From positions 1 to 47,387 of the forward strand of contig JAGAMY010000025.1 in the NCBI GenBank assembly GCA_017624495.1: a stretch of DNA of 47,387 nt, given 5' to 3'. A model generated the notes under the pieces. It was given only the letters and a program-made list of their open reading frames with translations, searched no databases and had not been told where the DNA came from. The position numbers and the translations under genes were made by a program. How positions within the stretch are numbered: position 1 is the stretch's first letter; every line of letters begins with the position of its first letter. The DNA is from Lachnospiraceae bacterium (GTDB lineage Bacteria; Bacillota; Clostridia; Lachnospirales; Lachnospiraceae). Shown piece after piece: positions 15,853-30,090 of this stretch.

Positions 15853-18800
15853 TTATTTTATTTTAATTTTAATCTTCGCCGTTTTATTCGTACCATCGGT
15901 AGATGCTGCAGTAATGGTGACTTTTTTGCCTTTTCCTGCTTTCTTTGTCTTTACAACACCATTTTTCACCGTTGCCCAGGCTTCGTTAGAAGATGTCCAC
16001 ACTAATTTCTTATTTACACTGCGACCTGTCGTCAGTATGGTCGTTTTAATTTTTAGCTGCTTTCCTGCTCTTACACTATTAGCTGCTTTTAATTTAATTT
16101 TCTTTACCGCATGTTTCATTAGCATAATCTTTACTGTTGCCTTTACACCACTTCCATCCACGGCTTTTGCCGTAATAGTAATGGTTTTTCCTGCTCCGGC
16201 TTTCTTAGTTGCTACCAATCCGTCTTCATTTACACTTGCATATGCATTTTTTGAAGATGACCACTCTAATTCAGATGTATCCGCATCCTCCGGCAAAACA
16301 ACAGGCTTTAAGGCTATTTTCTTTCCTGCTGCAATTTTCAGACTTTTTTCTGTGAACTTAATGCCTGTCACCAGTACCGCACCAGTTTCCTGTGGTTCTT
16401 CCTCCTTTGATGTTTCGGAATCATTTTTGATATTTTCATCTCCACCTGGTGTTTTATCATCATTTACTTTTTCAACGATTTTCAGATCCTTCAAGGCTGT
16501 TTCAAGTGCGACTTTTACTTCTGTAAGTTTTTCTACAGAAACATTTTCCTTTAATATAGCTTTTTCTGCTTTGGCAATTGCTGTCTGTAATACTTCCCAA
16601 GTTTCTTTTGTATATTCTTCTTCCACTAATATTTCAGCCTTTGCAATCACCTTTTTTAATTCCAGAACACATTCTTCCCTTGCTGCAATCTCTTTTGCTT
16701 CCGCTTTTGTCAATAAGCTGTCCATTGCATTCTGTAAACTTTCTGTAACCAAATGTATATCCTTCGCTGCAGCAGCTTCATTTTTCAGAATCACTTTTGC
16801 CTGAACTACAGCAGTTTCCAATATACTCCACGATTCTTCTGTATATTCTTCTGCTACTAAAGCACTTGTGTCGTTGACAACACTTTCCAGATAATTTGCA
16901 AAGATTTCTTCCTCTGAAAGAATTCCATTATAAATCATATAATTATCCAGATATCCCTTAAAGCCTTTTGACTCCTCCGGGTTTGCTTTACCAATCCGCA
17001 AAATTTCTGTATTACCAATGCTCTCACTTAAGTCATAAACAATATTTATACTCTCTGTCATTTCGCCATCTACATATAGCGTAATATTATTTTTTTCAAT
17101 TAATATATCTACATGTATCCAGTCTGTGCTGTCAGCCTGCACATAGATATTCTGACCTGTACCGCCTGTATTCTTTATACACTCTATCCAAAGTCCCGAT
17201 GCATCCTGAAAAATTCCTAAATATTCTTCATTATCCATCTGATCCTGTCCAGCGTATGCAGCATAAAAAATACAATTTCGTTCTCCGCTTTCTGCTTTTA
17301 CATCATAAGATACTGTAATTGCATTTTTTCCTGCCAGCAGACTGCTTCCATCTACGGCTGTCACTTCTAAATAGGTATCTGTCCCATTAAAATATAATGC
17401 CTTGTCTGCCAATGTTTTCGCTTTCAGCTTATAATCACCAAAAACTTCTGCTTTTGCTTTTCCGGCAGCAAATATACCATCTTTGGCATCTGTGTTAAAA
17501 TCTAAGTCAAATAACACATAAAATTCCAATGCTTCCCATGCGTATTCCAAATTTTCACACACAGCTACTATTTCACTTGATACAACGTCTGCATCCTTTA
17601 GTACATTTTCTGCATAAATCATCGCATTCTGTACTGCACTCCAGCTATCTTTTGTGTAGTCTTCTGCGGTCATTCCTTCTACTGCCTCTTTTATTTCTGC
17701 AAGCTTTGTACGCAATTTCTGTGCTGCTGCTTCTTTTTGCGCCTGTACTATGGTTTTTAACGCCTTTATTGCTGCATCGACATTTTCTTTTGCTGCGTGA
17801 ATATCTGTTGATACAGATACTTCACTTGCCATAACTGCCTCTGCTTTATCAATTGCGGCCTGCAATACTTCCCATGTTTCTTCTGTGTAATCTTCTTTGA
17901 CAAGCTTGTCCGCTTCTGCAAGTATTTCTGTCAATGCCTGCATATTTTCTGCTTTTGCTGCAATTTCTTCTGCCTCTTCTTTTGTCATTAAGCTTTCTTC
18001 TGCTTTTTCTATTTCCTCTAATACAGCATATACTCTATCAGTATCTGTGAGTTCAGGATTTTTAAGTATTTCTTCTGCCACAGTAATAACATCCTGCAAA
18101 GCCTGCCAGCTCTCTTCTGTATAATCAGCTTCATTAAGTACTTTTAGCATCTCTTTTACTTCTGTAAGTTTTGCTGTCAATTTTTTTATACTCTTATAAT
18201 CACAACCACTGCATACAGCCAACCAGCTAATAATCGGTGCATTGTTATCCATAGCCGTTAGGGTATATGTGACAAGTGTTTCCTCTTCTAACGTAATTTC
18301 AGTTGTATGTATAACGGGGTTTGCACTTGCACTTGCATTTACAATTCCTCCATCTATGGTTGTACCCTCATAAGAAACTGTCACTGCCATTGAACGCCCA
18401 ATTCTCCACCAGTCACAATGTCCGGAAATTATTTTATATGAACCTTCAGGCAATGTAAATGCATATGACAAAGTCTCTCCAACAGTGTTATTTGCTGCAT
18501 AAATCCCCGTTGCCATCTTGTCTTTTGTATTCAGATGTGATTTTGTAGCACAATCCTTATCCACCAGTCCCCATGTATTTTCAGCAGTTTTCAACTGATC
18601 GGATACTTCATTTATCAGCATATCTCCATATATGGATTTTACTGCTTCATAAGCTTCTGTTGTTGCATTTTCAGCCGGTTCGGCTTCTACCGTATCAATA
18701 AAATAATATGTAGGATTGAAAACTACAGTATCCACACCAAGCGAAACAGTTATCGGATAACCAAATAAATCCACAACGTTCTGCACAGTGCCAATAATAT

Positions 18801-21633
18801 TTGTTCTACCAAACGCATCTACATCATACGCATTTTCCGGAACAGACCATACAACATCTTTCAACACATTTTCTCCGGTTAACGATGTAACCTCCACCTG
18901 CTTTGGCAATGTATACCGTTCATTAATCTCTTCTATCGTTGAATCTACTGGAATTGCCGGGATTTCCAATAGGGAATCTTCTGATGCATCTATAACCACA
19001 TCTTCTGCTGTTTCTTTGCGTATACCAAGTGTATACAATGCATCAACCACTAATTCTCCCGATTTCACTACAACAGTTATTGTATGTTCCCCGTCCGCTA
19101 AATCTGAAAACACATAGGATTCTCCACGAATAGGTGCTGCAAGTGTTTCTGCATTTTCATCTTTCAATTCATTATCGACATATACATCTATTACTGCTGT
19201 ATTAGCATTTTCACCTACAAGCGCAAATCCTGTTCCATGTACTTTAAATGTGAATGAAGCATCCGAAGTATTTGCTATAGAAAGTGTACGATACCAGCTT
19301 TCCCCATCTCTTCCACCTGGATTTTCAATGGACCATGTACCGGCATATTCTACACTATCATCCTGACTGTCTACTAAAGCGACGGCATAAGGTATTCCTC
19401 CTAGAACAGTTTCTATTTTCAAATTATCAAAATATACTGTATCCCATGCGGAACTTAATTGCACACGCCCGGAAAGCATAGGAACACTATCCGTATATGT
19501 CACAACTTTCTCACCATTAACTGCTGCCATAATTTTATTGCCATAGCCTAACAACTTCAGGCTGTACATATGATTTTCCGTCATATCTGTTTTTCCACTG
19601 GCCACTACTGTCGCCAAACGGTATAATTTCCAGTTTCCATCATCGCTGATTTCAAAAGTATATCCACTGTCATTCCAACTCATTACTCCCTGTGAACGAA
19701 TTGACAGACGCGCCATACCATCCTCTTTAGGAATTGTTACATCCACAGATGCCACATAATCCATCCAGCGTGAATCACCAATCACAGTAGACGGTTCTCC
19801 ATCATTCCACTGTTTTACAGCGGTGGATAACTCCTGTTTTAACATTCCATTTTCCACAACCCATGCACCATGTGCATCTGACATATAACGTGGTTCATTC
19901 CCCCTTGAAACCATATAGTTTTCATCATATTCTTCATATTCAAAATCGTCTGCATACAGGATTGTATCTTCTGTCACACCATTCACAACACCAGCTTCAT
20001 CTGTATCTAAGACAGTTCTGTCATCGTTATGCATACCTTCCTCTGGTAAAGCAAGTTCCGTTTCATCTACAATAAGTGTAGTTGCTGTTGCCATACTGTA
20101 TGGCGGAAGCATCACCAACCATCCATCTGTACCTTTTTCAATTGTACCCTTGTTCTGCATATAATTATCTGTCTCTGTCAGCCAGAAATTCAATGCTGCA
20201 TCTTCTGCTATATCCAGACCATCTTCTTTGATACAAAAATATTTTGTATTCTGGGTATTATTTACAAATACAACAGAAAAATCCTTGCCATCAGGAGATG
20301 CTAAAGTCATATAACCGGCATCACCGTCAATACCTGCTGTTTCATGCTCATCCTCTGAACCGTCAAAAGAACCATCCGTTGCACCGGCAATTACACGCCA
20401 GATATCATTTTGTTCCGGATTGCTGTCTTCCCATCCTGTTTTCGCAAACTTTGCAAAATGCTCAAGCATGTATAATGCCGGATCATAATGAATATATCCA
20501 CTCCACGGATCACAGGCACTTAACAGCTCTTTGTGACCAAATGAAAGTCCTTCATAAAATGAACCAATTGCCGGTTGAAATATATAATGCGTGTGTCGTG
20601 CAGATGAAGCTCCTGTAATTATACTATCCATTAATGCTAGCGGACTCTGATAGCCACCGATACTTTTGTAGCCATATGTACTTGTCTTGTTTTCCTGTAA
20701 CTCCGTATAACCAAATGCTGCGCATCCCTCACTATACCAAACTTCCTTATCATCCACATCTGCCATGGTTACATAATCTTCTGTAGCCGATGTTCTGTAA
20801 TGAAGACCAATAACATCTGCAGCATCATATAATTCCGAATCATTTCGCATGGATGAAACAATATTTAATGTATTCTTCTCATCTGCAGCAATTATGCGGA
20901 TATTATTGTACGCATCCTTAGCATCTTCTGAAAAATATTCCGGAAAATCTATTTCTGTTGCAAGCTTATTTGCAAACCATTTGATAAAATCTTCATCCGG
21001 ATCTACTGCTTCATTTTCATCCGGATTAACAAAATCTATAACATAACCATATTTTTCATATGCATCAAAAATGGTTTCTCTGTACCATTTATACACAGCT
21101 TCATATCCTTCACCCGTTCTGTCACTGTTCCATTTTGTTTTTACCCAATCCGGCATAGCCCAGCGAAGAATACTTACTTTTACATTTGAATTAATGGCTT
21201 TTGCATCTGCTGCCATAACAAATCCCACGGAACGTGACGCATCTGCTTCTTCATCTTCATATCGCATCGTGCAGGCTTCTGCACTTGCAGCGTTATTTCC
21301 ATCATTACCCATTTCTATTTTGATATGTGTAAATAATGGATTTTCCCCACCAAACAGATAACTCATCATTTCTTCATATTTTTCAGGCGCACTTGTTTTG
21401 TAATCAAAAAGCAAATTACCTGTACTGTGATTTAACATACCGAACCCTTTGTATGTCAGACCATTCTGATTTGTTGCGGCCGCTTCTACATCAGATGCCT
21501 GAATCGTAATAACTTCAGCATCTGATGTTACCTCTGTTTCCTCTGCAAGCGCATTTACCGGTAAAAATGATAATGTCATGGCAAATATCATGACTGTAGC
21601 AAAAATCGACTTTAACCATTGTTTTGTTTTCAT
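15853..21633 (-). CDS. Secreted multidomain GH59-like beta-galactosidase
   Basis: The 1926-residue protein begins with a signal peptide (about 1-30). Residues 55-420 form a GH59 (galactocerebrosidase-like) barrel: candidate acid/base Glu in FVNPDENEA near 208, nucleophile Glu in VWYSEG near 303, and DPWSGYIHYDP as in GALC. Residues 505-745 resemble the GALC beta-sandwich and lectin-like parts (YADDFEYEEYDENY, VYFDNLKIE). Next come a CBM-like domain (745-870), a Big-type domain (900-968) and a galactose-binding-like domain (975-1145). FIVAR modules follow, with a LamG domain at 1375-1580 between the third and fourth. Two Big_2 domains end the chain, which closes in lysine-rich KIK. No LPXTG is present. 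Start: ATG with AAAGGAGAGAGG upstream. Substrate is probably galactan; the exact specificity is uncertain. Confidence 0.8.
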   Translation of the reverse strand: MKTKQWLKSIFATVMIFAMTLSFLPVNALAEETEVTSDAEVITIQASDVEAAATNQNGLTYKGFGMLNHSTGNLLFDYKTSAPEKYEEMMSYLFGGENPLFTHIKIEMGNDGNNAASAEACTMRYEDEEADASRSVGFVMAADAKAINSNVKVSILRWAMPDWVKTKWNSDRTGEGYEAVYKWYRETIFDAYEKYGYVIDFVNPDENEAVDPDEDFIKWFANKLATEIDFPEYFSEDAKDAYNNIRIIAADEKNTLNIVSSMRNDSELYDAADVIGLHYRTSATEDYVTMADVDDKEVWYSEGCAAFGYTELQENKTSTYGYKSIGGYQSPLALMDSIITGASSARHTHYIFQPAIGSFYEGLSFGHKELLSACDPWSGYIHYDPALYMLEHFAKFAKTGWEDSNPEQNDIWRVIAGATDGSFDGSEDEHETAGIDGDAGYMTLASPDGKDFSVVFVNNTQNTKYFCIKEDGLDIAEDAALNFWLTETDNYMQNKGTIEKGTDGWLVMLPPYSMATATTLIVDETELALPEEGMHNDDRTVLDTDEAGVVNGVTEDTILYADDFEYEEYDENYMVSRGNEPRYMSDAHGAWVVENGMLKQELSTAVKQWNDGEPSTVIGDSRWMDYVASVDVTIPKEDGMARLSIRSQGVMSWNDSGYTFEISDDGNWKLYRLATVVASGKTDMTENHMYSLKLLGYGNKIMAAVNGEKVVTYTDSVPMLSGRVQLSSAWDTVYFDNLKIETVLGGIPYAVALVDSQDDSVEYAGTWSIENPGGRDGESWYRTLSIANTSDASFTFKVHGTGFALVGENANTAVIDVYVDNELKDENAETLAAPIRGESYVFSDLADGEHTITVVVKSGELVVDALYTLGIRKETAEDVVIDASEDSLLEIPAIPVDSTIEEINERYTLPKQVEVTSLTGENVLKDVVWSVPENAYDVDAFGRTNIIGTVQNVVDLFGYPITVSLGVDTVVFNPTYYFIDTVEAEPAENATTEAYEAVKSIYGDMLINEVSDQLKTAENTWGLVDKDCATKSHLNTKDKMATGIYAANNTVGETLSYAFTLPEGSYKIISGHCDWWRIGRSMAVTVSYEGTTIDGGIVNASASANPVIHTTEITLEEETLVTYTLTAMDNNAPIISWLAVCSGCDYKSIKKLTAKLTEVKEMLKVLNEADYTEESWQALQDVITVAEEILKNPELTDTDRVYAVLEEIEKAEESLMTKEEAEEIAAKAENMQALTEILAEADKLVKEDYTEETWEVLQAAIDKAEAVMASEVSVSTDIHAAKENVDAAIKALKTIVQAQKEAAAQKLRTKLAEIKEAVEGMTAEDYTKDSWSAVQNAMIYAENVLKDADVVSSEIVAVCENLEYAWEALEFYVLFDLDFNTDAKDGIFAAGKAKAEVFGDYKLKAKTLADKALYFNGTDTYLEVTAVDGSSLLAGKNAITVSYDVKAESGERNCIFYAAYAGQDQMDNEEYLGIFQDASGLWIECIKNTGGTGQNIYVQADSTDWIHVDILIEKNNITLYVDGEMTESINIVYDLSESIGNTEILRIGKANPEESKGFKGYLDNYMIYNGILSEEEIFANYLESVVNDTSALVAEEYTEESWSILETAVVQAKVILKNEAAAAKDIHLVTESLQNAMDSLLTKAEAKEIAAREECVLELKKVIAKAEILVEEEYTKETWEVLQTAIAKAEKAILKENVSVEKLTEVKVALETALKDLKIVEKVNDDKTPGGDENIKNDSETSKEEEPQETGAVLVTGIKFTEKSLKIAAGKKIALKPVVLPEDADTSELEWSSSKNAYASVNEDGLVATKKAGAGKTITITAKAVDGSGVKATVKIMLMKHAVKKIKLKAANSVRAGKQLKIKTTILTTGRSVNKKLVWTSSNEAWATVKNGVVKTKKAGKGKKVTITAASTDGTNKTAKIKIKIK

Positions 21634-21696: not shown

Positions 21697-21741
21697 TATC
21701 AAATATTTTTTCTTTCACAAGCAATCATAGACAATTACTCT

Positions 21742-21765
21742 GGTAAACTATCCTTCATACAAAGC
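21742..21765. repeat. Left copy of the 24-nt cassette-flanking repeat
   Basis: GGTAAACTATCCTTCA-T-ACAAAGC differs at one position from 28179-28202, which lies in the 3' end of the intact subtilase gene. Read on the minus strand it encodes LCMKDSLPE and then a stop, against LCVKDSLPRESW in the intact gene. Weaker similarity continues on both sides. It is either an attachment-site-like duplication or the remnant of a second subtilase gene. Confidence 0.7.
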
Positions 21766-21961
21766 CTCACCCTTTAATATCAAGTTCTTGCTAAGAACTT
21801 TTTTCAACCTAAAATCTCGCTAACCGCAAAACTTCGTTGGGGTAATGTTAAATAATTGCTAAGTTCAGTAAAAATTGATGAGATGTTAGTGTCTGCTTCT
21901 TTTTATGCTACAATATGAGCTACAGATTTCTCTTTAACTCTTCATTGTATTAAGTTGCAAA

Positions 21962-24900
21962 TTATTCTTTTTTTGTGTCTAGTTTTATATTTTGTAAAAC
22001 CTGATTAAATATTTCTGATTTTCCCCATGCAACATCATCACCAACAACATATAATCGATATCTTGCACGTGTAACTGCTACATTAACAATATTTTCGTTA
22101 ACCCATTTTATCGCACCTTCCGCCGCCTTTTTTTCATCACATCCCAATAGAAAAATCACTTCATCTGCTTCTTTTCCTTGAAAAGTATGCACTGTACCAA
22201 TATGTTTTGACAGCCATTCTGAATCTACTTTTCCGTACATGGCAGATTGCTGATTTGCCTCAATGTATTTTTCTAATTCATTCTTCATCCCAAAAACTAC
22301 CGTTGTAAATGGACTAATAATATATACATCCGGAACTTCATTCTTTACAAATTCCACTTCCAATATCTGTATAACAGCTCTTGCCTGTTCCTCTACAAAA
22401 TGATTTTTATTCCCCACTTCATGTCCCTTTACCGCAAGCCACTTCGATTCAGAATATACAAAAGTTCTCTGTTTTTCTTCATTTGGCACAATGGTCTTCT
22501 GTTTCATAATTTGGCTATAAGATATCTCATTTGATATTTCGAACATAGGCGAAATACATCTTCTATGCACAATCAAAGGACATCCCACCCATTCTATAAC
22601 ACCTTTAAACTCTAACCATGTACCATACTTATTTAAACTATCTGCAAATGTTTGTACTGATATGTTTGTTGATACATACAATCTTTCTATCTCGTTTCGT
22701 TCATATGCTCTTTTTATTAATTGTAAATCATCTGTAACAACAGGCTCGATTTGTCTGGGATCTCCTACCACAATTGCTTTTCTAGCCCTATACAATGCTC
22801 CTACTGCCATCTGTGGTAATGCCTGTCCAGCTTCGTCAATCACTAATCTTCCTATCTCTCCTGCTCCTACATCCTTCAAAAAAGTTCCAACAGACGCAAA
22901 TGTGGTAGAAACAACCGGCACTAAGAGAAATAATGTTTGATATAATTTCCCAACTGCTTCTCTTGCATCTTCTGTATGGAACAATACTACCTTTTTACCA
23001 TCATCTCTTTTGCGTTCCTTCCAATATAACTCAAGATTTATAATATTATCCCTAACAGATCGAGATGCCAATGCAAAGGATTCATGTAATCTTAAAGCAA
23101 TATAAAACAAGCGCTCTCGCTGTCTATTATACTCAGCGGTAAACCATGGGTTCAAAACATGTGCTTCCGTACTCTTTGAAACTTCTTTTGATAATAAATT
23201 TTGAACAAATTCATCATTTAACCATTGAAATTTCTTACTATCTTCTCCATTAACGCTTCTGGCTACATGTTCAAGATACTCCTTATGTATTTTCTCCATA
23301 GCCGAAAAATAACTTTCTCTCTTTTTCTCTATTTCCTTAATTGCGCTTTCTATATCTTGAATCTTGTGTACACGTTCCTCCCATTTCTGCTTTAATCTTT
23401 TTTCATTATCTTGCTTTAATTCACACTCCTTTCGTTTTACGCTGTATTGTTTTTCATATTTTATTTTATCTTTATTATAGATTTCCATTTCCTGCATTAA
23501 GAAATCCATTTCCTGACTATAAAAACTATATTTTTGTGTTATTTCTCTTGCTTTTTTTGTATTAAACCACTTACTAACAATACCTATTCTCGGCAAACTA
23601 TTTCGTTCAGTTTCTGCTTGCATATATTTTTGTCTTAAATCAGTAATCTTTTTAGTCATTTCACAACTTGCTCTGTTAGCTTTATTATAATCTTCTTCTG
23701 CTAAGTGACATTCGCGTTGTACTATACATAATTTTTCCTTAAGAATATTTTCTTTCTGCTTATTCTCGTAAAGATTTTCATACAACTTATTTTTTTCAGC
23801 CTCTACATACATAAGTTTTTCTTGCAAGTCATTCCACTCTTTATGTCCCTCTAAGTCAGATAAAAACCTTAACTCCAATTGCATTTTTTCCACAACATCT
23901 AGTTGTATTTTAAACTCTTGACATATTTTTTGATATTCTTGTAACCTTCCCCGTTTCATCTTTTCACTACATAACGCATAATCGAGATTTTTCAAAACCT
24001 TTTTATAAAAATCATGAATATTACTTCTCTTTCCTAACGGAGCCGCTATCAATCCCCATGCCTTTTCTCCAAATAAGTTTCGGGCATATTTTGTAAAATA
24101 AATATTTCGGCAATCAGGCAAAGGTTCATCAAATACTTCGCCTTTCGCTTCTGCATTTTCTTTACATGTAAACCAAAAATTTTCTTCAATTTCCTTAATC
24201 CACTCAGCAACTGAATTTTCCGATACTGAAAATAATTTTTTTATCTCTTTTAGTTCACTTTTCATCTGTACAGAATCTGATTTATTTTCTCCTAAAGCCT
24301 CAGTGATTTTGTCCTCTATCGGCAACTCTTTTGTTATATTTTCAACAGCTGTATTATTACATGATGCAACAACCACGCTAAAATCATTTATCCTATCATC
24401 TTTCAATTCATGATATTCTTGTGCCCATTTTGTATAGGCATTTTTCTTACCCACATTGCCATGTTTAAATTCTAAATGATTAAATGCATCATCCGGGTCA
24501 TCATAATTTACCAGTAACTTTGCCCGCTCTACTACATTGTGAACAACTATTTCTTTTAACAGTGTGGTTTTCCCTGTTCCAGGGGGACCATTGACAGAAA
24601 AAATAGGTTCATTTCCTGATATCGCCAAATTAATTGCCACTTGTTGCATAAATGCAGGCATATATCTGGATGGCCATTTTCCCAAAGGGGCTTTATCCGG
24701 TCGCATAATATCCAAAAGAATATTTTTGTACTCCTCCATACTTCTACTATTCTCTTGCACATGTAGTAAATCAACCCTTTTTCTATCGTTTTTTCCATAT
24801 GCTTCTTCATACCTACTTACAATATAATCAGCTAATCTTCTCTGCATCCCACTGCCTTGAATTATTTCTCCAGCTTTCTCAAGTACCATTTCTATATCAG

Positions 24901-25807
24901 ATGCAAAATAATTTTTACATAAACCGTGATACTCCTCCTCTTCTTCCTGATTCCATGTCTCATCATCCTTATAAAGAACAAAATCTAACCATATCCCTGA
25001 TTCCATATCATAATTTCTTTTAAATTCATCTGTTTCAGTGAACTTTATGTTATGCTTTAAATATTTCGTATAAATACTTTTCTGTAAATCAACTATGTCT
25101 TCCTTTTTCAATGAATATGCATATTCTTGAATATATTTACCTTCATCATCCAATTTATATTGCTTTTTATCTTCCTCATCAGCATTTTCTACACGATCGT
25201 ATGCTTCTTCTGATTTTACACCTTGATTGATAGCCGTAAGTTCAAGATCATATTGCGAATCTACACTGTCATATAATGCTTTTGCCAGTTTTTCGGACAT
25301 ATTATCATTTTCTTTTATATCTTTAAGCTGATTTATCGCCCAAATTACTGGTGAAAGAGAAAAACTTCTCTCAATATATCTCAAATCGGGACCAGTCTGC
25401 AAACTCACCCATGCAATTTTTTCTATAGTTTTTTCAACACGTTTATCAGGTTCGTTTAGTAATGATGCAATTTTTTCAATACACAATTCGCGCTTTATTT
25501 TTCCTGCATAAATAGTAATATTGCCCCATCGTGTCATTCCATATTCTTGTGCACATTCTTTAATTATTTTATAAATATCTGTATTTTTAGGCTTAACCTC
25601 ATAAAATATATGTAACTTATTTGCACTATTTTTCTTTTTCACTTCCGCAGATAAGTTCTTCGCTGAATTTAGCACTTGCTTTTTAACTTCATTCGCCTTT
25701 TTCTTATCTTCTGCACTCCAGCTAGGTATTTTTTCTTGATTAAGAAATTCAATTACATACCAATAATTCAATACTGTCTTTATAATTTCTATTTTATTTT
25801 TATCCAT
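21962..25807 (-). CDS. SF1 helicase with long coiled coil (DNA2/NAM7-like)
   Basis: This 1281-residue protein starts with a roughly 390-residue N-terminal region I do not recognise. The superfamily 1 motor is complete: Walker A GPPGTGKTT (407-415), Walker B VIDEAGQALPQ (about 988-998), VVGDPRQIEPV, GTVHTFQGKEADEVIF (about 1204) and VNVAVTRARYRLYVVGD. Between motifs I and II, about 610-860, is a long Glu/Lys-rich coiled coil. No nuclease motif is visible. Related helicases recur in phage-defence operons, but the partner genes here fit no system I know. It starts 26 nt after the 75-residue gene, with AAAGGA before the ATG, and is last in its operon. Confidence 0.85.
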   Translation of the reverse strand: MDKNKIEIIKTVLNYWYVIEFLNQEKIPSWSAEDKKKANEVKKQVLNSAKNLSAEVKKKNSANKLHIFYEVKPKNTDIYKIIKECAQEYGMTRWGNITIYAGKIKRELCIEKIASLLNEPDKRVEKTIEKIAWVSLQTGPDLRYIERSFSLSPVIWAINQLKDIKENDNMSEKLAKALYDSVDSQYDLELTAINQGVKSEEAYDRVENADEEDKKQYKLDDEGKYIQEYAYSLKKEDIVDLQKSIYTKYLKHNIKFTETDEFKRNYDMESGIWLDFVLYKDDETWNQEEEEEYHGLCKNYFASDIEMVLEKAGEIIQGSGMQRRLADYIVSRYEEAYGKNDRKRVDLLHVQENSRSMEEYKNILLDIMRPDKAPLGKWPSRYMPAFMQQVAINLAISGNEPIFSVNGPPGTGKTTLLKEIVVHNVVERAKLLVNYDDPDDAFNHLEFKHGNVGKKNAYTKWAQEYHELKDDRINDFSVVVASCNNTAVENITKELPIEDKITEALGENKSDSVQMKSELKEIKKLFSVSENSVAEWIKEIEENFWFTCKENAEAKGEVFDEPLPDCRNIYFTKYARNLFGEKAWGLIAAPLGKRSNIHDFYKKVLKNLDYALCSEKMKRGRLQEYQKICQEFKIQLDVVEKMQLELRFLSDLEGHKEWNDLQEKLMYVEAEKNKLYENLYENKQKENILKEKLCIVQRECHLAEEDYNKANRASCEMTKKITDLRQKYMQAETERNSLPRIGIVSKWFNTKKAREITQKYSFYSQEMDFLMQEMEIYNKDKIKYEKQYSVKRKECELKQDNEKRLKQKWEERVHKIQDIESAIKEIEKKRESYFSAMEKIHKEYLEHVARSVNGEDSKKFQWLNDEFVQNLLSKEVSKSTEAHVLNPWFTAEYNRQRERLFYIALRLHESFALASRSVRDNIINLELYWKERKRDDGKKVVLFHTEDAREAVGKLYQTLFLLVPVVSTTFASVGTFLKDVGAGEIGRLVIDEAGQALPQMAVGALYRARKAIVVGDPRQIEPVVTDDLQLIKRAYERNEIERLYVSTNISVQTFADSLNKYGTWLEFKGVIEWVGCPLIVHRRCISPMFEISNEISYSQIMKQKTIVPNEEKQRTFVYSESKWLAVKGHEVGNKNHFVEEQARAVIQILEVEFVKNEVPDVYIISPFTTVVFGMKNELEKYIEANQQSAMYGKVDSEWLSKHIGTVHTFQGKEADEVIFLLGCDEKKAAEGAIKWVNENIVNVAVTRARYRLYVVGDDVAWGKSEIFNQVLQNIKLDTKKE

Positions 25808-25833
25808 ATAGTCCTTTCATGTAAGTATCTCTA

Positions 25834-26061
25834 CTATGCAATTCCATATTTGTTAAAAATACAATTCAAATCTTCTTTGCTAATTTTTCCTGCCAAATAA
25901 TAAGCTTTTACACTTGCTTCTACTGCTTCAAAAACTGTATCAAACATAAACCAATCACCGACATCATAATATTCCTGTAATTCATCAAAATCATGTTGCA
26001 ATCCCTCTGGCAAATTACCTCTTAAAAAAATCTTTTCATCGACATACATTATCTGCACCAT
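25834..26061 (-). CDS. Small protein of the kinase/helicase cassette
   Basis: I do not recognise this 75-residue acidic protein. It contains RGNLPEGLQHDFDELQEYYD and FDTVFEAVEASVKAYYLAGK, both probably helical, and no membrane segment. Its start overlaps the 3' end of the kinase gene by 13 nt, so translation is coupled. An in-frame second ATG five codons in is an alternative start. The tight coupling suggests a regulator, antitoxin or kinase substrate, but that is inference. Confidence 0.7.
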   Translation of the reverse strand: MVQIMYVDEKIFLRGNLPEGLQHDFDELQEYYDVGDWFMFDTVFEAVEASVKAYYLAGKISKEDLNCIFNKYGIA

Positions 26062-27002
26062 CCCTTCTTCTGTTCACAATTACCGATTTCTTTTTCCACT
26101 ATTTTCTGACATACCGGTAATAACACCTTTTCATACCTATAATCAATAATTGATATAAAAAATTGTTTCTGAACTTCTGATAATGTTGGTATTTCTTCTA
26201 TCATTGCCCGAATTCTACTCATACCACTATCTATTCTAGGTGTAAGTCTGCGGATAGCATCTGAACATTCCTGATATTCCATGCTTTCCATTATATGATA
26301 TGGATTTACTCGTCTTCCCTGCAATTCAAAAATACATCTACGCGCTTTATACGCCTCTGCCTCCATTTTAGCAGCATCATTCATTACTATCTGCATCTTT
26401 TCATCATCCCATTTATTATTTAAACAATTTCCATTATCATAAACGGGTGCCAGTTCTTTTGAGCCATCTTTTCTCAAAACAATTCCCCAATTACTATTAT
26501 TACGGTCTGCATTCCCAATTAGAGCATCAATTATAAACATATCCCAAAAACGTTCTATCACTCCGGGAATATCTTGCAGAAATGGATGTTCCTGTATCGT
26601 CATTATGATTTCATATAAGTCCACGCCAACACCATTTGTTTCATTGCCATTTGAATCCAAAAAATGTGGTTCAAATGTAACTTTTATCTTGTCAAATTCG
26701 TAAAGCCTGTCTCCATCCTCTAAAAAATCTTCACAGGCAACAACAATCTTCTCATTTCTTATCCCCAGAATCGTATTATGCACCGATACACCTATTAATT
26801 CATATATCTTTGAACCAATATATTCACAAACCGGACTATTTGAATAACTGAGATTAATATTTTTCATCTGTTGTTCTTTTAAATTACCCGGAAATTTCAA
26901 AAGATAATCTTTACCATTATAAGTAATTCCCATTTTTCTACCAGCGGTTCCGCCGTACATTCTTTGATTTTGCCCATAATCATTGAAATTGACCAGTTCC
27001 AT
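26049..27002 (-). CDS. HipA/CtkA-like serine/threonine kinase
   Basis: The 317-residue protein has the stand-alone HipA-C/CtkA kinase fold. It shows a glycine-containing N-terminal loop (YGGTAGRKMGITYNGKDYLL) with ATP-binding Lys36, the catalytic loop LIGNADRNNSNWG (Asp166, Asn171) and the metal-binding LAPVYDNG (Asp189). All key residues are present, so activity is expected. HipA kinases phosphorylate targets such as tRNA synthetases and are usually neutralised by an Xre-type HipB. No such gene is next to it here; an integrase-fold gene precedes it by 70 nt and a 75-residue gene overlaps its end. The ribosome site GGTGAGGTGAT supports the start. Confidence 0.85.
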   Translation of the reverse strand: MELVNFNDYGQNQRMYGGTAGRKMGITYNGKDYLLKFPGNLKEQQMKNINLSYSNSPVCEYIGSKIYELIGVSVHNTILGIRNEKIVVACEDFLEDGDRLYEFDKIKVTFEPHFLDSNGNETNGVGVDLYEIIMTIQEHPFLQDIPGVIERFWDMFIIDALIGNADRNNSNWGIVLRKDGSKELAPVYDNGNCLNNKWDDEKMQIVMNDAAKMEAEAYKARRCIFELQGRRVNPYHIMESMEYQECSDAIRRLTPRIDSGMSRIRAMIEEIPTLSEVQKQFFISIIDYRYEKVLLPVCQKIVEKEIGNCEQKKGWCR

Positions 27003-27072
27003 AATATCACCTCACCCATTATTTTCTCTATCTTTATTAGTTTATCTCTCCAATATTTAATTACAATTCCTG

Positions 27073-28005
27073 CTAAACTTGTAGTTTTTCATTAATTACT
27101 TTTTCTACATCCTCATCCGTTAATAAATATTTTGAAACATCCTCTATCTTTTGTGTTTCAAAACCTGTAAGTAGTTTTACTTCCTCTAGTGTTAATCCCT
27201 TTTCAATCAAATTTGAAACCCCTTGTAATGCAACTGTAGTCGGTGTAAAATTCGTAACATCTATTCTTTTCATTTTATCTTTCAAAGTTCCAAATATACT
27301 ATCAGGTGTCAACTGCGCACCATTACTTTTTGTAAACAAGTATGTCCTATCTACATATTTATGTAACTCGCAATATTTTACCAGTTCTTCCAATATATCT
27401 TTTTCTAACCTTATATGCATCCCATACTCTTCATCACCATTTATCAACAGAGTTCCTTCTTCTTTATTTAACTCGTCTTTTTTCATGTTTATAATAACCT
27501 TTTCTTTAAATCCATATGTTAAAAGAAGCCTATAAATAACACGTTGTCCAAATTGATAAAAATTATTATAATTCAAAAGTTCCAATTGTTCTTCTACAAT
27601 CTTCACTTCACGCTCCCCATCAAAAGGCAAGTATATTTTTTGTCTTAATTCATCATTCAAACTTATACATATATCATGCACTACCTGTTTCTTTCTACAT
27701 CCATTTTCCAAATGTTCCCATATAATCCCCCTTTCCCTAATATACTTATAAAATTGATCTATCGCTGTCAAAAATCTTTGAACTGCTTCAATAGATGTTG
27801 CCTTTTTACTTGTTTCAAAATAATATCTACAAGCATACCTAACTTGTATCATGGTAAGTTCTTTAGACATTCCTGATAATGAAACATTTGTAAATTCTCT
27901 GTCACAATAATCTAAAAAACTATTATAGCATGCTCTATAGTTTGGACGTATTTCTTTTATTGTCTTATAATAATCGTCTAAAACCTGTCTTAATGATTCA
28001 CTCAT
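27073..28005 (-). CDS. Tyrosine-recombinase-fold protein lacking catalytic residues
   Basis: Starting at ATG 28005 (AAGGAG 7 nt upstream) it has 310 residues; an ATG at 28059 would add 18 but lies on the predicted transcription start. The N-terminal half resembles a core-binding SAM-like domain. The C-terminal half follows the phage-integrase fold (FGQRVIYRLLLTYGFKEKVI; TPTTVALQGVSNLIEKGLTL; LLTGFE; VSKYLL). The first catalytic Arg is Lys, the HxxR motif reads TxxA, the later His/Trp is Phe, and only the Tyr near the end remains. It is probably a DNA-binding protein without recombinase activity, and is first in the cassette operon. Confidence 0.75.
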   Translation of the reverse strand: MSESLRQVLDDYYKTIKEIRPNYRACYNSFLDYCDREFTNVSLSGMSKELTMIQVRYACRYYFETSKKATSIEAVQRFLTAIDQFYKYIRERGIIWEHLENGCRKKQVVHDICISLNDELRQKIYLPFDGEREVKIVEEQLELLNYNNFYQFGQRVIYRLLLTYGFKEKVIINMKKDELNKEEGTLLINGDEEYGMHIRLEKDILEELVKYCELHKYVDRTYLFTKSNGAQLTPDSIFGTLKDKMKRIDVTNFTPTTVALQGVSNLIEKGLTLEEVKLLTGFETQKIEDVSKYLLTDEDVEKVINEKLQV

Positions 28006-28065
28006 TGGTTTTCTCCTTCTCTCACTCTCATAAAACCTTAGTTTTATTGCATTGCCCATATTTAT

Positions 28066-28094
28066 ATAATATCACCGTAAATTTAAAAAGTAAA
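28066..28094 (-). promoter_or_regulatory. Predicted promoter of the kinase/helicase cassette
   Basis: On the minus strand, TTTACT (28089-28094) and TATTAT (28066-28071) are 17 nt apart. Transcription would start near 28059, about 54 nt before the preferred start codon of the integrase-fold gene. Confidence 0.5.
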
Positions 28095-28138
28095 CCATTC
28101 TAATTTTTTTATATTTGGAAATCTTACTACAATAATAT

Positions 28139-30013
28139 TTAAGCATAAAATACGTTAATCAAAGGCCAACTCTCCCTTGGTAAACTATCCTTCACACAAA
28201 GCACCCCCCACCCAATCTGCGGATTCGGATACTCCCTCACCGCCGGTAACTGCCTTGCACCCCGTATCAGATATGCCTTCAACTTTTCCCCATATAAAAA
28301 TACATCCCGTTTCTGCGCGATACCATATTCCATCAAAAGAGCTGCACTTCCAGTCACAAAGGGCGCAGCCATGGATGTGCCACTTCTTGCCACATAGCCG
28401 CCTCCCGGTGAAGCCGATATAATATCTACACCGGGGGCTGCTAAATCCGGTTTTATCTGATTCGTCCATGCAGTGAATCCTCTGCCGGAAAAAGCTGCTA
28501 TGCTGTCTGTGTTTGCATCATAGGCTGCCACACTGATAACCTTTGCCGTGGTTGATGGAATTGTCAGTGTCCGTATTTCTGATGGATAAGAAAATCCCGT
28601 CCCTTCGTTTAATACACCACCCGACGGCAGCCACAAATCATAAATTCCATCCACGATTTTCCCCGCACTAAGCCGAATTCTCCACAACCCTGATGGAATA
28701 TAATTTTCCTTAGGAATAAAGTCCACATAAATTTCCTGATACATACTATATGGAACAGGCTCTCCATAAAAAACTAAAAGTGTCAGTTCCTCAAATTCCA
28801 CCCGCAAAGTTCCCTGTCCTATCAACTGACCTGTTGTTCTGCCATCCGGCAAAAGAATTTCCACCCGGATTTCATCCTGATAACGCTTCCATACCTGCAA
28901 ATTCAACCTGCGTTCATAGCTGCTGACGGTAAGCTCGATATCCTGTACTTCATCATTTGCAAGACGACTTTGATAATGCGCCGTACCAGCTCCTTCATTT
29001 CCTGTTCCTGCCACAATACTGCACTGGTGTTTATCTGCCATATCATTTAAGAATGTCTCTAACAGACTGGTACCGCTGTGTGAACCATAATTATTTCCAA
29101 AACTCAAATTTATCGCTATCGGCATCCCTAACTGCTCTGCCGCCCGTATACAAAAATCTACCGCCTTCATCAGCTCCGTTGTTTTTGGAAAAGAATTTTC
29201 CCCCGGTGTGCCCAGTTTTACGATGAAAAGCTCTGCTTCATAGGCAACCCCTCTGTATCTTCTCATGGAAGCCCTGCCGTTTCCTGCAGCAATTCCTGCT
29301 ACATGGGTGCCATGCCCGGATGTATCACGGCTTGGCACAATTTTCTGCCGATTTGCCATGTCATTTTCTGCAAGGGCAAGGTTTATCTGTTCACGGGAAA
29401 ACAGAACTCCATCTGCATATCCTTGCGGCGCACTGTAAGTGATATCCGCATTGATGCTTGTACGGGCTGCATTTAAAACTTCACTTTCTAACGTCTGATC
29501 CCACAATGCCACAATTCTTGTACTGCCATCCTCATTTCGAAAATCCGGATGGGCATAATCAATACCACTGTCAATAACTGCCACAAGACAGTTTGCCCCA
29601 GTAAGTCTCCTCCCCCCATCCACAGCATTTCCCGGTGCAGTGCCAGTCGCAGGTTGCACCGCAGTAATACAAGAGGCTCTTTTTGCCGTATCTATGGCAA
29701 AAAAGAGCCTCTTTGGTTTTTCCATATAAATAATTCCATCCAGATTTGCTGCCGCATCTACCAAAGCCTCAGGCAATTGTAATATGGCATAAGAATTACT
29801 TAGTATTACAATTTTTGAAATCAGCGTTTCATTTCCACTTTCTCTAAGCAAATTTTCTACCTGTCCGATACCATCCCCTACATACCGCACAATAACTTCC
29901 CAAGTGTTATTTCCCGGTAAATATCCTGTTTCTAAATTCAGAGATTTTTCCCTTTCTAAGGGACTGGCATCCAAAGAAAGATTTAATAAATTTTCTATTT
30001 TCGCATTGCTCAA
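28139..30013 (-). CDS. Csp-like cytoplasmic S8 subtilase
   Basis: The 624-residue peptidase has an intact triad: Asp in LVAVIDSGID (about 148), His in SGHGTHVAGIAAG (about 234) and Ser in SGTSMAAPFVTG (about 547). The oxyanion region is AGTGNEG. A long insert between His and Ser and the lack of a signal peptide match the clostridial Csp group, which processes spore or cell-associated proteins. I chose TTG at 30013 as start because AGGAGG lies 6 nt upstream; an in-frame extension to 30088 has no such site. Its 3' end contains the right copy of the cassette-flanking repeat. Confidence 0.85.
   Translation of the reverse strand: MSNAKIENLLNLSLDASPLEREKSLNLETGYLPGNNTWEVIVRYVGDGIGQVENLLRESGNETLISKIVILSNSYAILQLPEALVDAAANLDGIIYMEKPKRLFFAIDTAKRASCITAVQPATGTAPGNAVDGGRRLTGANCLVAVIDSGIDYAHPDFRNEDGSTRIVALWDQTLESEVLNAARTSINADITYSAPQGYADGVLFSREQINLALAENDMANRQKIVPSRDTSGHGTHVAGIAAGNGRASMRRYRGVAYEAELFIVKLGTPGENSFPKTTELMKAVDFCIRAAEQLGMPIAINLSFGNNYGSHSGTSLLETFLNDMADKHQCSIVAGTGNEGAGTAHYQSRLANDEVQDIELTVSSYERRLNLQVWKRYQDEIRVEILLPDGRTTGQLIGQGTLRVEFEELTLLVFYGEPVPYSMYQEIYVDFIPKENYIPSGLWRIRLSAGKIVDGIYDLWLPSGGVLNEGTGFSYPSEIRTLTIPSTTAKVISVAAYDANTDSIAAFSGRGFTAWTNQIKPDLAAPGVDIISASPGGGYVARSGTSMAAPFVTGSAALLMEYGIAQKRDVFLYGEKLKAYLIRGARQLPAVREYPNPQIGWGVLCVKDSLPRESWPLINVFYA
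28179..28202. repeat. Right copy of the 24-nt cassette-flanking repeat
   Basis: GGTAAACTATCCTTCA-C-ACAAAGC lies in the last codons of the intact subtilase gene, encoding LCVKDSLP on the minus strand. It is one mismatch from the copy at 21742-21765, with the cassette of four genes between them. Confidence 0.7.
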
Positions 30014-30090
30014 ATGAAACCTCCTGCATATACTTATCTGCAACCATTCAGTTACTTTATTTCCATAAATATATACAAGTTTCAGCACAT

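What the first reader, a model, noticed from the sequence alone, without database searches (positions are those of the whole stretch)
21962..28005. Four-gene cassette: dead integrase fold, HipA/CtkA kinase, 75-residue protein, coiled-coil SF1 helicase
Seen: four same-strand genes spaced 70 nt, -13 nt and 26 nt under one predicted promoter, between a glycosidase and a subtilase gene. Known: HipA kinases normally pair with Xre-type HipB, and SF1 DNA2/NAM7-like helicases recur in anti-phage operons. Inference: an integrase-fold DNA-binding protein replaces HipB as sensor or regulator, the kinase is the effector switch, and the helicase senses or processes foreign nucleic acid. I know of no named system with this gene set.
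Basis: partly seen in the sequence, partly recalled or inferred. Interest (0 to 1): 0.78.

Follow-up and report, generated by a model that had tools for sequence, protein, structure and literature searches.

The report
Mobile defence cassette with dead integrase
A small mobile block of four genes, slotted into the end of a germination-type gene of a gut bacterium, carries a probable kinase toxin with its likely antidote, a helicase and a broken integrase whose relatives sit at the head of many different anti-virus gene sets.

Summary
The four genes are real and in the stated order. They lie in one integrated cassette (about 21741-28209): a 32-nt direct repeat flanks them; one copy is the 3' end of the Csp-like subtilase gene, the far copy still encodes a csp-type C-terminus (CMKDSLPE*). 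Related csp-3'-end cassettes, some in tandem with elements carrying large serine recombinases, share the far-end sequence, as in SCC elements.

The kinase is CtkA-like. Its conserved neighbour is the 75-residue protein (13 of 19 kinase loci), which in one genome is fused to an HTH; it is the likely antitoxin. The helicase is MkoC-like and was found beside no other kinase.

The most interesting gene is the integrase. It belongs to a clade of tyrosine recombinases that lost catalysis (27 proteins, each keeping 0-1 of 5 catalytic residues), are under purifying selection, and often lie directly upstream of very different defence genes: type I-C CRISPR-Cas, restriction-modification, SIR2, RhuM, YhcG, HipA kinases. 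Of 16 close downstream genes scanned, 12 matched PADLOC models strongly. The six kinase-linked members share a palindrome with a 6-nt spacer in their leader. I read them as operon controllers; that function is inferred, not shown.

The parts
28178..28209 (-). attachment repeat, left copy: 3' end of the csp-like subtilase gene
   Evidence: 32-nt direct repeat, 88% identical to 21741-21772; same core at csp 3' ends of L002, L006, L081, L169, L207
21741..21772 (-). attachment repeat, right copy; still encodes a csp-type C-terminus, CMKDSLPE*
21799..21893 (-). right-end sequence shared with related csp-site cassettes and serine-recombinase elements
   Evidence: 71% over 96 nt to the L208 right end, E 2.5e-6; alignment
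28066..28094 (-). promoter-like site TTTACT-17-TATTAT, kept in the alignment of six relatives
28028..28049 (-). palindrome CAATAAAA-CTAAGG-TTTTATGA in the leader, candidate operator of the dead integrase
   Evidence: (0 of 1000 column shuffles reach it)
27073..28005 (-). catalytically dead tyrosine recombinase (head gene, probable controller)
   Evidence: profile match to active recombinases 99.2%; catalytic residues 0 of 5
26049..27002 (-). CtkA/HipA-like protein kinase (probable toxin or effector)
   Evidence: CtkA 3akj E 9.9e-45; PADLOC PDC-M03A 1.8e-32; motifs intact
25834..26061 (-). 75-residue kinase partner, probable antitoxin without DNA-binding domain
   Evidence: adjacent to the kinase in 13 of 19 loci; HTH fusion in L045
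21962..25807 (-). SF1 helicase, MkoC-like, cargo gene of the cassette
   Evidence: PADLOC MkoC 9.8e-54; AAA_12/AAA_11
28139..30088 (-). csp-like subtilase gene, insertion target; its C-terminus runs on into the cassette
   Evidence: CspBA model 1.4e-109, below that model's curated cut-off; tail KDSLPRESWPLINVFYA where other csp genes end at KDSLPA or the like

Best explanation
The four genes are the cargo of a small, non-autonomous integrative cassette in the 3' end of a csp-like subtilase gene (shown by sequence). Related cassettes with the same end sequences lie in tandem with elements that carry large serine recombinases, which most likely move the cassette in trans, as in SCC elements (inferred). 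The kinase is a toxin or abortive-infection effector held in check by the 75-residue protein (inferred from conserved pairing, gene-order swaps and one HTH fusion). The head gene is a catalytically dead tyrosine recombinase, probably kept as a DNA-binding controller: it would bind the palindrome between promoter and start codon and repress the operon, and its release would raise expression of the genes behind it (inferred). Many of its relatives head other defence operons (shown). The helicase is an additional defence-type cargo gene, not part of a fixed four-protein machine.
For: Cassette: repeat 28178-28209/21741-21772; far copy reads as a csp C-terminus; csp without a cassette in the same-genus genome G143; two att copies in L002, L079, L081; shared right ends; large serine recombinases directly before a right end in L079 and, by similar ORFs, L208 and L209. 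Kinase partner. Dead clade: 27 proteins, 0-1 of 5 catalytic residues, one side of a branch with support 100/99 against 30 active ones; dN/dS 0.07-0.16 in 19 of 20 pairs, 0.33 in one. Defence neighbours: a same-strand ORF within 150 nt downstream in 18 of 27 (4 others end at a contig edge); of 16 of those 18 scanned, 12 match PADLOC at E<=1e-20, from 9 kinds of system, against 2 of 11 upstream genes scanned (1 of 10, plus the window's csp). Palindrome in all six kinase-linked members, 42 of 48 pairs, best of 1000 column shuffles 37; 2 other near-matches in 1.61 Mb of held, partly overlapping loci.
Against: The palindrome is significant as a conserved set in one subclade; taken singly, only 5 of 27 leaders have a repeat at P<=0.05, and no shared operator was seen for other subclades. 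Binding, repression, toxicity and defence are untested. 4 of 16 close downstream genes have no strong PADLOC match (Schlafen-type L123, L124; small ORFs L130, L132), and 5 of 27 have no close same-strand ORF although the contig goes on. In seven loci the dead integrase is the first gene inside an attachment site, the usual place of a working integrase, so a role in mobility is not excluded. The tree tool warned that the long branches on both sides meet at the deep join.
Confidence: 0.6

Rival explanations
1. The dead integrase is a mobility factor, not a transcription controller: it binds the cassette ends as an accessory or directionality factor and the cut is made by another recombinase (serine recombinases of tandem elements, or the host Xer pair).
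For: First gene inside the attachment site in WIN, L003, L006, L079, L081, L169 and, at the prfA 3' end, L083 (41-nt repeat around integrase + restriction enzyme + methyltransferase). No active recombinase gene was seen inside the cassettes whose two ends are known (WIN, L079, L083).
Against: Sister cassettes at the same csp site have no dead integrase (L002; first cassette of L081; third of L079; second of L208). Of 24 members scanned for a repeat, only WIN, L079, L081 and L083 gave a clear one; the CRISPR-Cas locus L134 gave none in 9 kb, though for many others little downstream sequence was held. The conserved palindrome sits in the leader, not in the attachment repeat.
Confidence: 0.22
2. 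The dead integrases are decaying leftovers of the integrases of former islands, carried beside defence genes without function.
For: Defence genes commonly sit in islands with integrases (general knowledge); in L081 the kinase next to a dead integrase is itself only a remnant.
Against: Open frames under purifying selection; one clade rather than scattered losses (with its long-branch warning); different partners behind close relatives (L127 RhuM, L134 CRISPR-Cas, L135/L136 HipA + HIRAN).
Confidence: 0.1
3. One reading: a four-component defence machine in which the integrase senses, the kinase switches and the helicase processes foreign nucleic acid.
For: All four genes are in one cassette, same strand, with short gaps.
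Against: Helicase found in 0 of 19 other kinase loci (in L005 and L006 the contig ends too early to tell) and not seen near the kinase in 4 other genomes with both; L079 is a cassette bounded on both sides with only integrase, kinase and small protein.
Confidence: 0.08

Closest known systems
SCC / ECC cassette chromosomes (staphylococci, enterococci; PMC6222049, passages seen)
   Same: Insertion in the 3' end of a conserved gene, short direct repeats as attachment sites, variable cargo, large serine recombinases in related elements.
   Different: Target is a csp-like subtilase gene, not rlmH; this cassette has no recombinase of its own; the units seen are very small (1.9-6.4 kb) and carry mainly defence-type genes.
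HipBA and related kinase toxin-antitoxin operons (PMC8262856, Results section read)
   Same: HipA-type kinase core next to a partner gene; gene order varies between relatives.
   Different: Partner is a 75-residue protein without an HTH (fused to one in L045); kinase is CtkA-like and short; a dead integrase gene is upstream.
HipIN / PDC-M03 (short HipA kinase plus HipS-HIRAN protein)
   Same: Kinase matches PDC-M03A models.
   Different: No HIRAN partner in the window; L136 has the HIRAN partner (L135 a gene of the same size and place), also behind a dead integrase. That PDC-M03 is the same pair as HipIN is my inference.
HipAD (DS-6; PMC13092281, passages seen)
   Same: HipA kinase with a non-HipB partner, reported to protect against phage.
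   Different: Partner there has DUF3037 and DUF1829; not this 75-residue family.
Mokosh type II (MkoC)
   Same: Helicase matches the MkoC profile at 9.8e-54.
   Different: The match ends at profile position 943 of 1136 and Pfam finds no PLD domain.
Domesticated Crypton tyrosine recombinases of animals (PMC3212892, passages seen)
   Same: Tyrosine recombinases that lost catalysis, many in transcription regulators.
   Different: Eukaryotic, a separate origin; no link to defence operons in the passages seen.
Autoregulated prophage integrase IntS of KplE1 (PMC2951348, passages seen)
   Same: An integrase that lowers expression from its own promoter at the attachment site.
   Different: IntS is an active integrase regulating its own gene.

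Membership tests
Tyrosine recombinase | Core-binding plus catalytic domain fold | tested here: met
   By sequence profile only: hhalign probability 99.2 over 267 columns; XerC-like, XerA and XerH chains in the PDB; no structure model available
Tyrosine recombinase | Catalytic R, H, R, H and nucleophile Y | tested here: not met
   K, T, A, F, S in the window; 0-1 of 5 in each of the 27 clade members
SCC-like cassette | Direct-repeat attachment sites at the 3' end of a conserved gene | tested here: met
SCC-like cassette | Large serine recombinase (ccr-type) in the element itself | tested here: not met
   No such gene among the ORFs between the repeats; such recombinases are in neighbouring elements of L079 and, by similar ORFs, L208 and L209
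SCC-like cassette | Insertion in rlmH | tested here: not met
   Target is the csp-like subtilase gene
HipBA toxin-antitoxin | HipA-type kinase with intact catalytic motifs | tested here: met
   CtkA match, motifs; HipA_C 29.7 bits, just under the cut-off 30.5
HipBA toxin-antitoxin | Adjacent Xre-type HipB antitoxin | tested here: not met
   75-aa protein without HTH match; HTH in the fused relative L045 and in the L099 partner, and by eye in L092 and L096
HipBA toxin-antitoxin | Toxicity of the kinase and neutralisation by the partner | not testable with these tools
   needs expression experiments
PDC-M03 | Kinase M03A and partner M03B | tested here: not met
   M03A matched, M03B not matched by any of the four proteins
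Mokosh type II | Helicase fused to a PLD nuclease domain | tested here: not met
   No PLD family in the Pfam scan; MkoC match stops at 943/1136; the PLD domain as a defining feature is recalled
Operon controller (C-protein-like) | Head gene with conserved operator in its own leader | tested here: inconclusive
   Palindrome conserved in six relatives; no binding data, other subclades without a shared motif

The most novel reading that the evidence does not exclude
A single clade of catalytically dead tyrosine recombinases has become a plug-in controller for bacterial immunity: the same kind of protein heads CRISPR-Cas, restriction-modification, SIR2, RhuM, YhcG, ATPase-type and HipA-kinase operons in Lachnospiraceae and relatives of the same order, represses them through recombinase-core-like palindromes, and perhaps releases them when it meets recombination intermediates or invading DNA.
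Probability: 0.45. Interest if true: 0.9.

Novelty: new variant of a known kind. Interest (0 to 1): 0.74.

Why it matters
If the dead integrases control the operons behind them, many unrelated immune systems share one kind of switch, and new defence genes can be found by looking behind that head gene. The csp-site cassettes also show defence genes arriving as very small, att-bounded units in gut bacteria. Both claims can be tested in laboratory strains. I saw no report of the association in the listings of searches (open-access library only, listings capped at 8-30 papers).

Tried and rejected
Rejected: helicase as a fixed partner (caveats). Integrase as the kinase antitoxin: the integrase was not found in 10 of the 13 loci with kinase and small protein (in L009 the contig ends before the upstream gene). 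The small protein as a known family: Pfam best 0.3, NCBIfam none, PADLOC PDC-S15 at 0.005, PDB profile best 0.086. The long repeats before L168 and L170 may be a terminator of the upstream gene and are not used. Inverted repeats taken singly: 5 of 27 leaders at P<=0.05.

Led nowhere: viral-contig pattern searches with the kinase, the helicase and the L136 and L125 integrases found no relatives; the kinase search missed L079 and L208, so its sensitivity is low. Plasmid searches with the L125 and L136 integrases and a phage search with the L164 integrase found none; the window integrase gave two partial plasmid matches at about 25% identity. The phage collection gave one kinase relative in an unannotated record. 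Attachment repeats were sought around 24 of the 27 dead integrases (3 had too little flank) in 0.5-9 kb of downstream sequence: clear for WIN, L079, L081 and L083, barely above its shuffles for L165 and L129, none for the rest.

Rows dropped: short fragments G208:C55, G344, G054 and G198; catalytic-looking G164 and G386 went to the active set, as did L147-L149. Matches L160-L163 (42-47 bits) were not examined. Of 30 control integrase loci, 2 (L183, L193) gave no integrase frame, and in 3 more the frame taken had no HxxR motif. The active set of the tree is 25 of these control loci plus 5 others; they were chosen by PF00589 or profile match and an HxxR motif, so two of the five catalytic columns are conserved in them by selection. 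The tree includes the catalytic columns. The 10 upstream genes are a chosen part of the 27 loci.
Full report
WHAT IS THERE. The window is a whole contig (C40) of an incomplete genome (1.93 Mb, 54.67% complete), probably Lachnospiraceae: contigs of two same-family genomes have the lengths of named Lachnospiraceae records (L005/G315, L014/G057). The four genes are on the minus strand between a GH59 glycosidase and a Csp-like subtilase, with gaps of 70, -13 and 26 nt. The kinase matches Helicobacter CtkA (PDB 3akj, E 9.9e-45) and PADLOC PDC-M03A (1.8e-32). The helicase has AAA_11/AAA_12 domains and matches MkoC (9.8e-54). The 75-residue protein has no family match of note. The integrase-like protein matches tyrosine recombinases by profile but has K, T, A, F, S at the five catalytic positions.

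THE FOUR GENES ARE ONE INTEGRATED CASSETTE. A 32-nt direct repeat (88%) flanks them: 28178-28209 is the 3' end of the csp gene, and 21741-21772 lies just beyond the helicase. The far copy reads CMKDSLPE*, the kind of ending that csp genes have elsewhere (KDSLPA in the same-genus genome G143, ENSLPG in L002, ERSLPG in L081, RDSLPL in L169), while the window's csp runs on as KDSLPRESWPLINVFYA. In G143 csp is followed directly by other genes, without a cassette. The same pair of sites encloses other units: L002 (SMEK-domain, NACHT-like protein, a 511-aa protein, kinase, small protein), L079 (dead integrase, kinase, small protein; 2.6 kb) and L081 (YhcG nuclease plus a 160-aa protein; 1.9 kb). A right-end sequence of about 165 bp is shared by L002, L079, L081, L208 and L209, more weakly by L020, and by the window at 71% over 96 nt (E 2.5e-6). 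In L079, L208 and L209 a right end directly follows large serine recombinase genes (Pfam Resolvase and Recombinase in L079; similar ORFs in L208 and L209), and further cassettes follow in tandem in L079 and L208. This is the architecture of SCC and ECC elements (PMC6222049, passages), with a different target gene. The window cassette has no recombinase of its own. That the serine recombinases move it is an inference from the shared ends.

KINASE AND PARTNER. Of 19 other kinase loci found, 13 have the small gene beside the kinase, 3 also have the integrase, and none has the helicase. Two of those three (L005, L006) end within 140 nt of the small gene, so a helicase there could not be seen; L003 and the viral-contig locus L079 hold 3.4 and 1.7 kb more and have none. 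In more distant relatives the small domain lies upstream of the kinase (for example L036-L038, L043, L053), and in L045 it is the C-terminal part of a protein with an HTH before it (HTH models). Xre-like partners are also seen in L099 and, by eye, in L092 and L096. Conserved pairing, order swaps and an HTH fusion are what one expects of an antitoxin, but neutralisation was not shown. HipA-type kinases with other partners are described as toxin-antitoxin operons (PMC8262856, Results read), and one, HipAD, protects against phage (PMC13092281, passages).

HELICASE. Of 299 family genomes, 11 have a helicase relative (E<=1e-30) and 31 a kinase relative (E<=1e-10); 5 have both, including this one. 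In the other 4 the two genes are on different contigs (G015, G208, G250; in G208 both lie near contig ends) or about 640 kb apart (G149). The helicase is cargo of this cassette, not a conserved partner as far as seen.

THE DEAD INTEGRASE CLADE. Searches with the dead integrase and its profiles gave 27 proteins that keep 0 or 1 of 5 catalytic residues. Against 30 active recombinases (25 from a PF00589 search of 20 genomes; 5 from the profile searches) they form one side of a branch with support 100/99; the tree tool warns of long branches at that join. Twenty pairwise dN/dS values are 0.07-0.16, except one of 0.33 for a very close pair. So the proteins are maintained, not decaying.

Of the 27, 18 have a same-strand ORF of at least 60 aa starting within 150 nt downstream, 4 end at a contig edge and 5 have neither. 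Sixteen of the 18 downstream proteins were scanned against PADLOC (not L006 and L080, which are kinases of the same family). Twelve match at E<=1e-20: kinases (WIN, L003, L079), type IV restriction (L082), type II restriction and methyltransferase (L083), SIR2 (L125), RhuM (L127), HEC-02 ATPase pair (L129), Cas3 of a type I-C CRISPR-Cas operon (L134), HipA kinase PDC-M03A (L135, and L136 with its HIRAN partner), YhcG (L168). That is nine kinds of system, several of them only candidates in PADLOC. Four do not match: two Schlafen-type proteins (L123, L124) and two short ORFs (L130, L132). Farther off, L164 has a KAP ATPase at 331 nt (PDC-S49, 1e-59) and L167 a PLD protein at 443 nt (3e-7).

Controls: of 10 genes upstream of dead integrases, 1 matches at that level (L082, itself inside a defence operon); the window's own upstream gene, csp, also matches a generic PADLOC subtilase model (1.1e-27), so 2 of 11. 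Of 28 active integrase loci that could be read, 6 have a close same-strand ORF downstream; the three longest of these, and one gene at 166 nt, were scanned and the best match is 0.0016. Relatives within one subclade have different partners (L127, L134, L135), which points to a movable head gene.

CANDIDATE OPERATOR. The six kinase-linked dead integrases share a promoter-like site and, between it and the start codon, the palindrome CAATAAAA-N6-TTTTATTG (42 of 48 pairs formed; 0 of 1000 column shuffles reach this, highest 37). The arms are conserved and the 6-nt spacer varies, which resembles a Xer-type core site (recalled). Within two mismatches it occurs in 1.61 Mb of held, partly overlapping loci only at these six leaders (16 overlapping copies) and at two other places. 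L002, L004 and L208, which have kinase and small protein without a dead integrase, do not show it. Other subclades gave no shared motif.

READING. The best-supported reading is a mobile defence and addiction cassette whose dead recombinase has become an operon controller. Precedents exist for the parts: an active prophage integrase that represses its own gene (PMC2951348, passages) and eukaryotic recombinases that lost catalysis and are found in transcription regulators (PMC3212892, passages). A role in mobility remains the main rival, because in seven loci the dead integrase is the first gene inside an attachment site, including a restriction-modification cassette at the 3' end of what reads as prfA (L083, 41-nt repeat). 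Against it, sister cassettes lack the gene. Two surveys looked at (PMC8987985, PMC8138268; passages) do not mention such proteins in the passages seen.

LIMITS. The functions are inferred. Genomes were sampled mostly from one family and order. PADLOC models include candidate systems.

Noticed in passing
L083:6776-10149: A restriction enzyme, a methyltransferase and a dead integrase sit between two copies of the 3' end of the upstream gene (prfA by eye; 41-nt repeat): a second, independent att-bounded defence cassette headed by a dead integrase.
   Followed up: partly
L134:8132-16936: Dead integrase 21 nt upstream of cas3 of a type I-C CRISPR-Cas operon (cas3 by PADLOC, later cas genes by eye); an HD-domain-like gene (by eye) lies further upstream.
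   Followed up: partly
L169:366-3355: A dead integrase of a different subclade is also inserted at the csp 3' end; the contig ends before its partner gene.
   Followed up: partly
L208:6182-12052: Viral-contig record with a serine-recombinase element followed in tandem by a cassette of methyltransferase, a GHKL-like ATPase (by eye), kinase and small protein.
   Followed up: partly
L018, L019, L097, L098: Distant kinase relatives have a ~300-aa gene directly downstream where the window type has the small protein; L018 and L019 share one family: another partner type.
   Followed up: no
L064:4867-9420, L065, L066: The closest helicase relatives have a C-terminal extension of about 240 aa with an R-x4-H motif like HEPN RNases (by eye); the window helicase lacks it.
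   Followed up: no
L133, L136 (and L127 before spmB): Dead integrases lie just downstream of spmA-like sporulation genes (by eye), perhaps another insertion site; no repeat was found for L136 or L127, L133 was too short to test.
   Followed up: partly
L079:9883-9954: A third right-end copy marks a further small cassette of two genes in tandem.
   Followed up: no
window 15853-21633: A 1926-aa GH59 protein with FIVAR, laminin-G and Ig-like domains next to the cassette.
   Followed up: no
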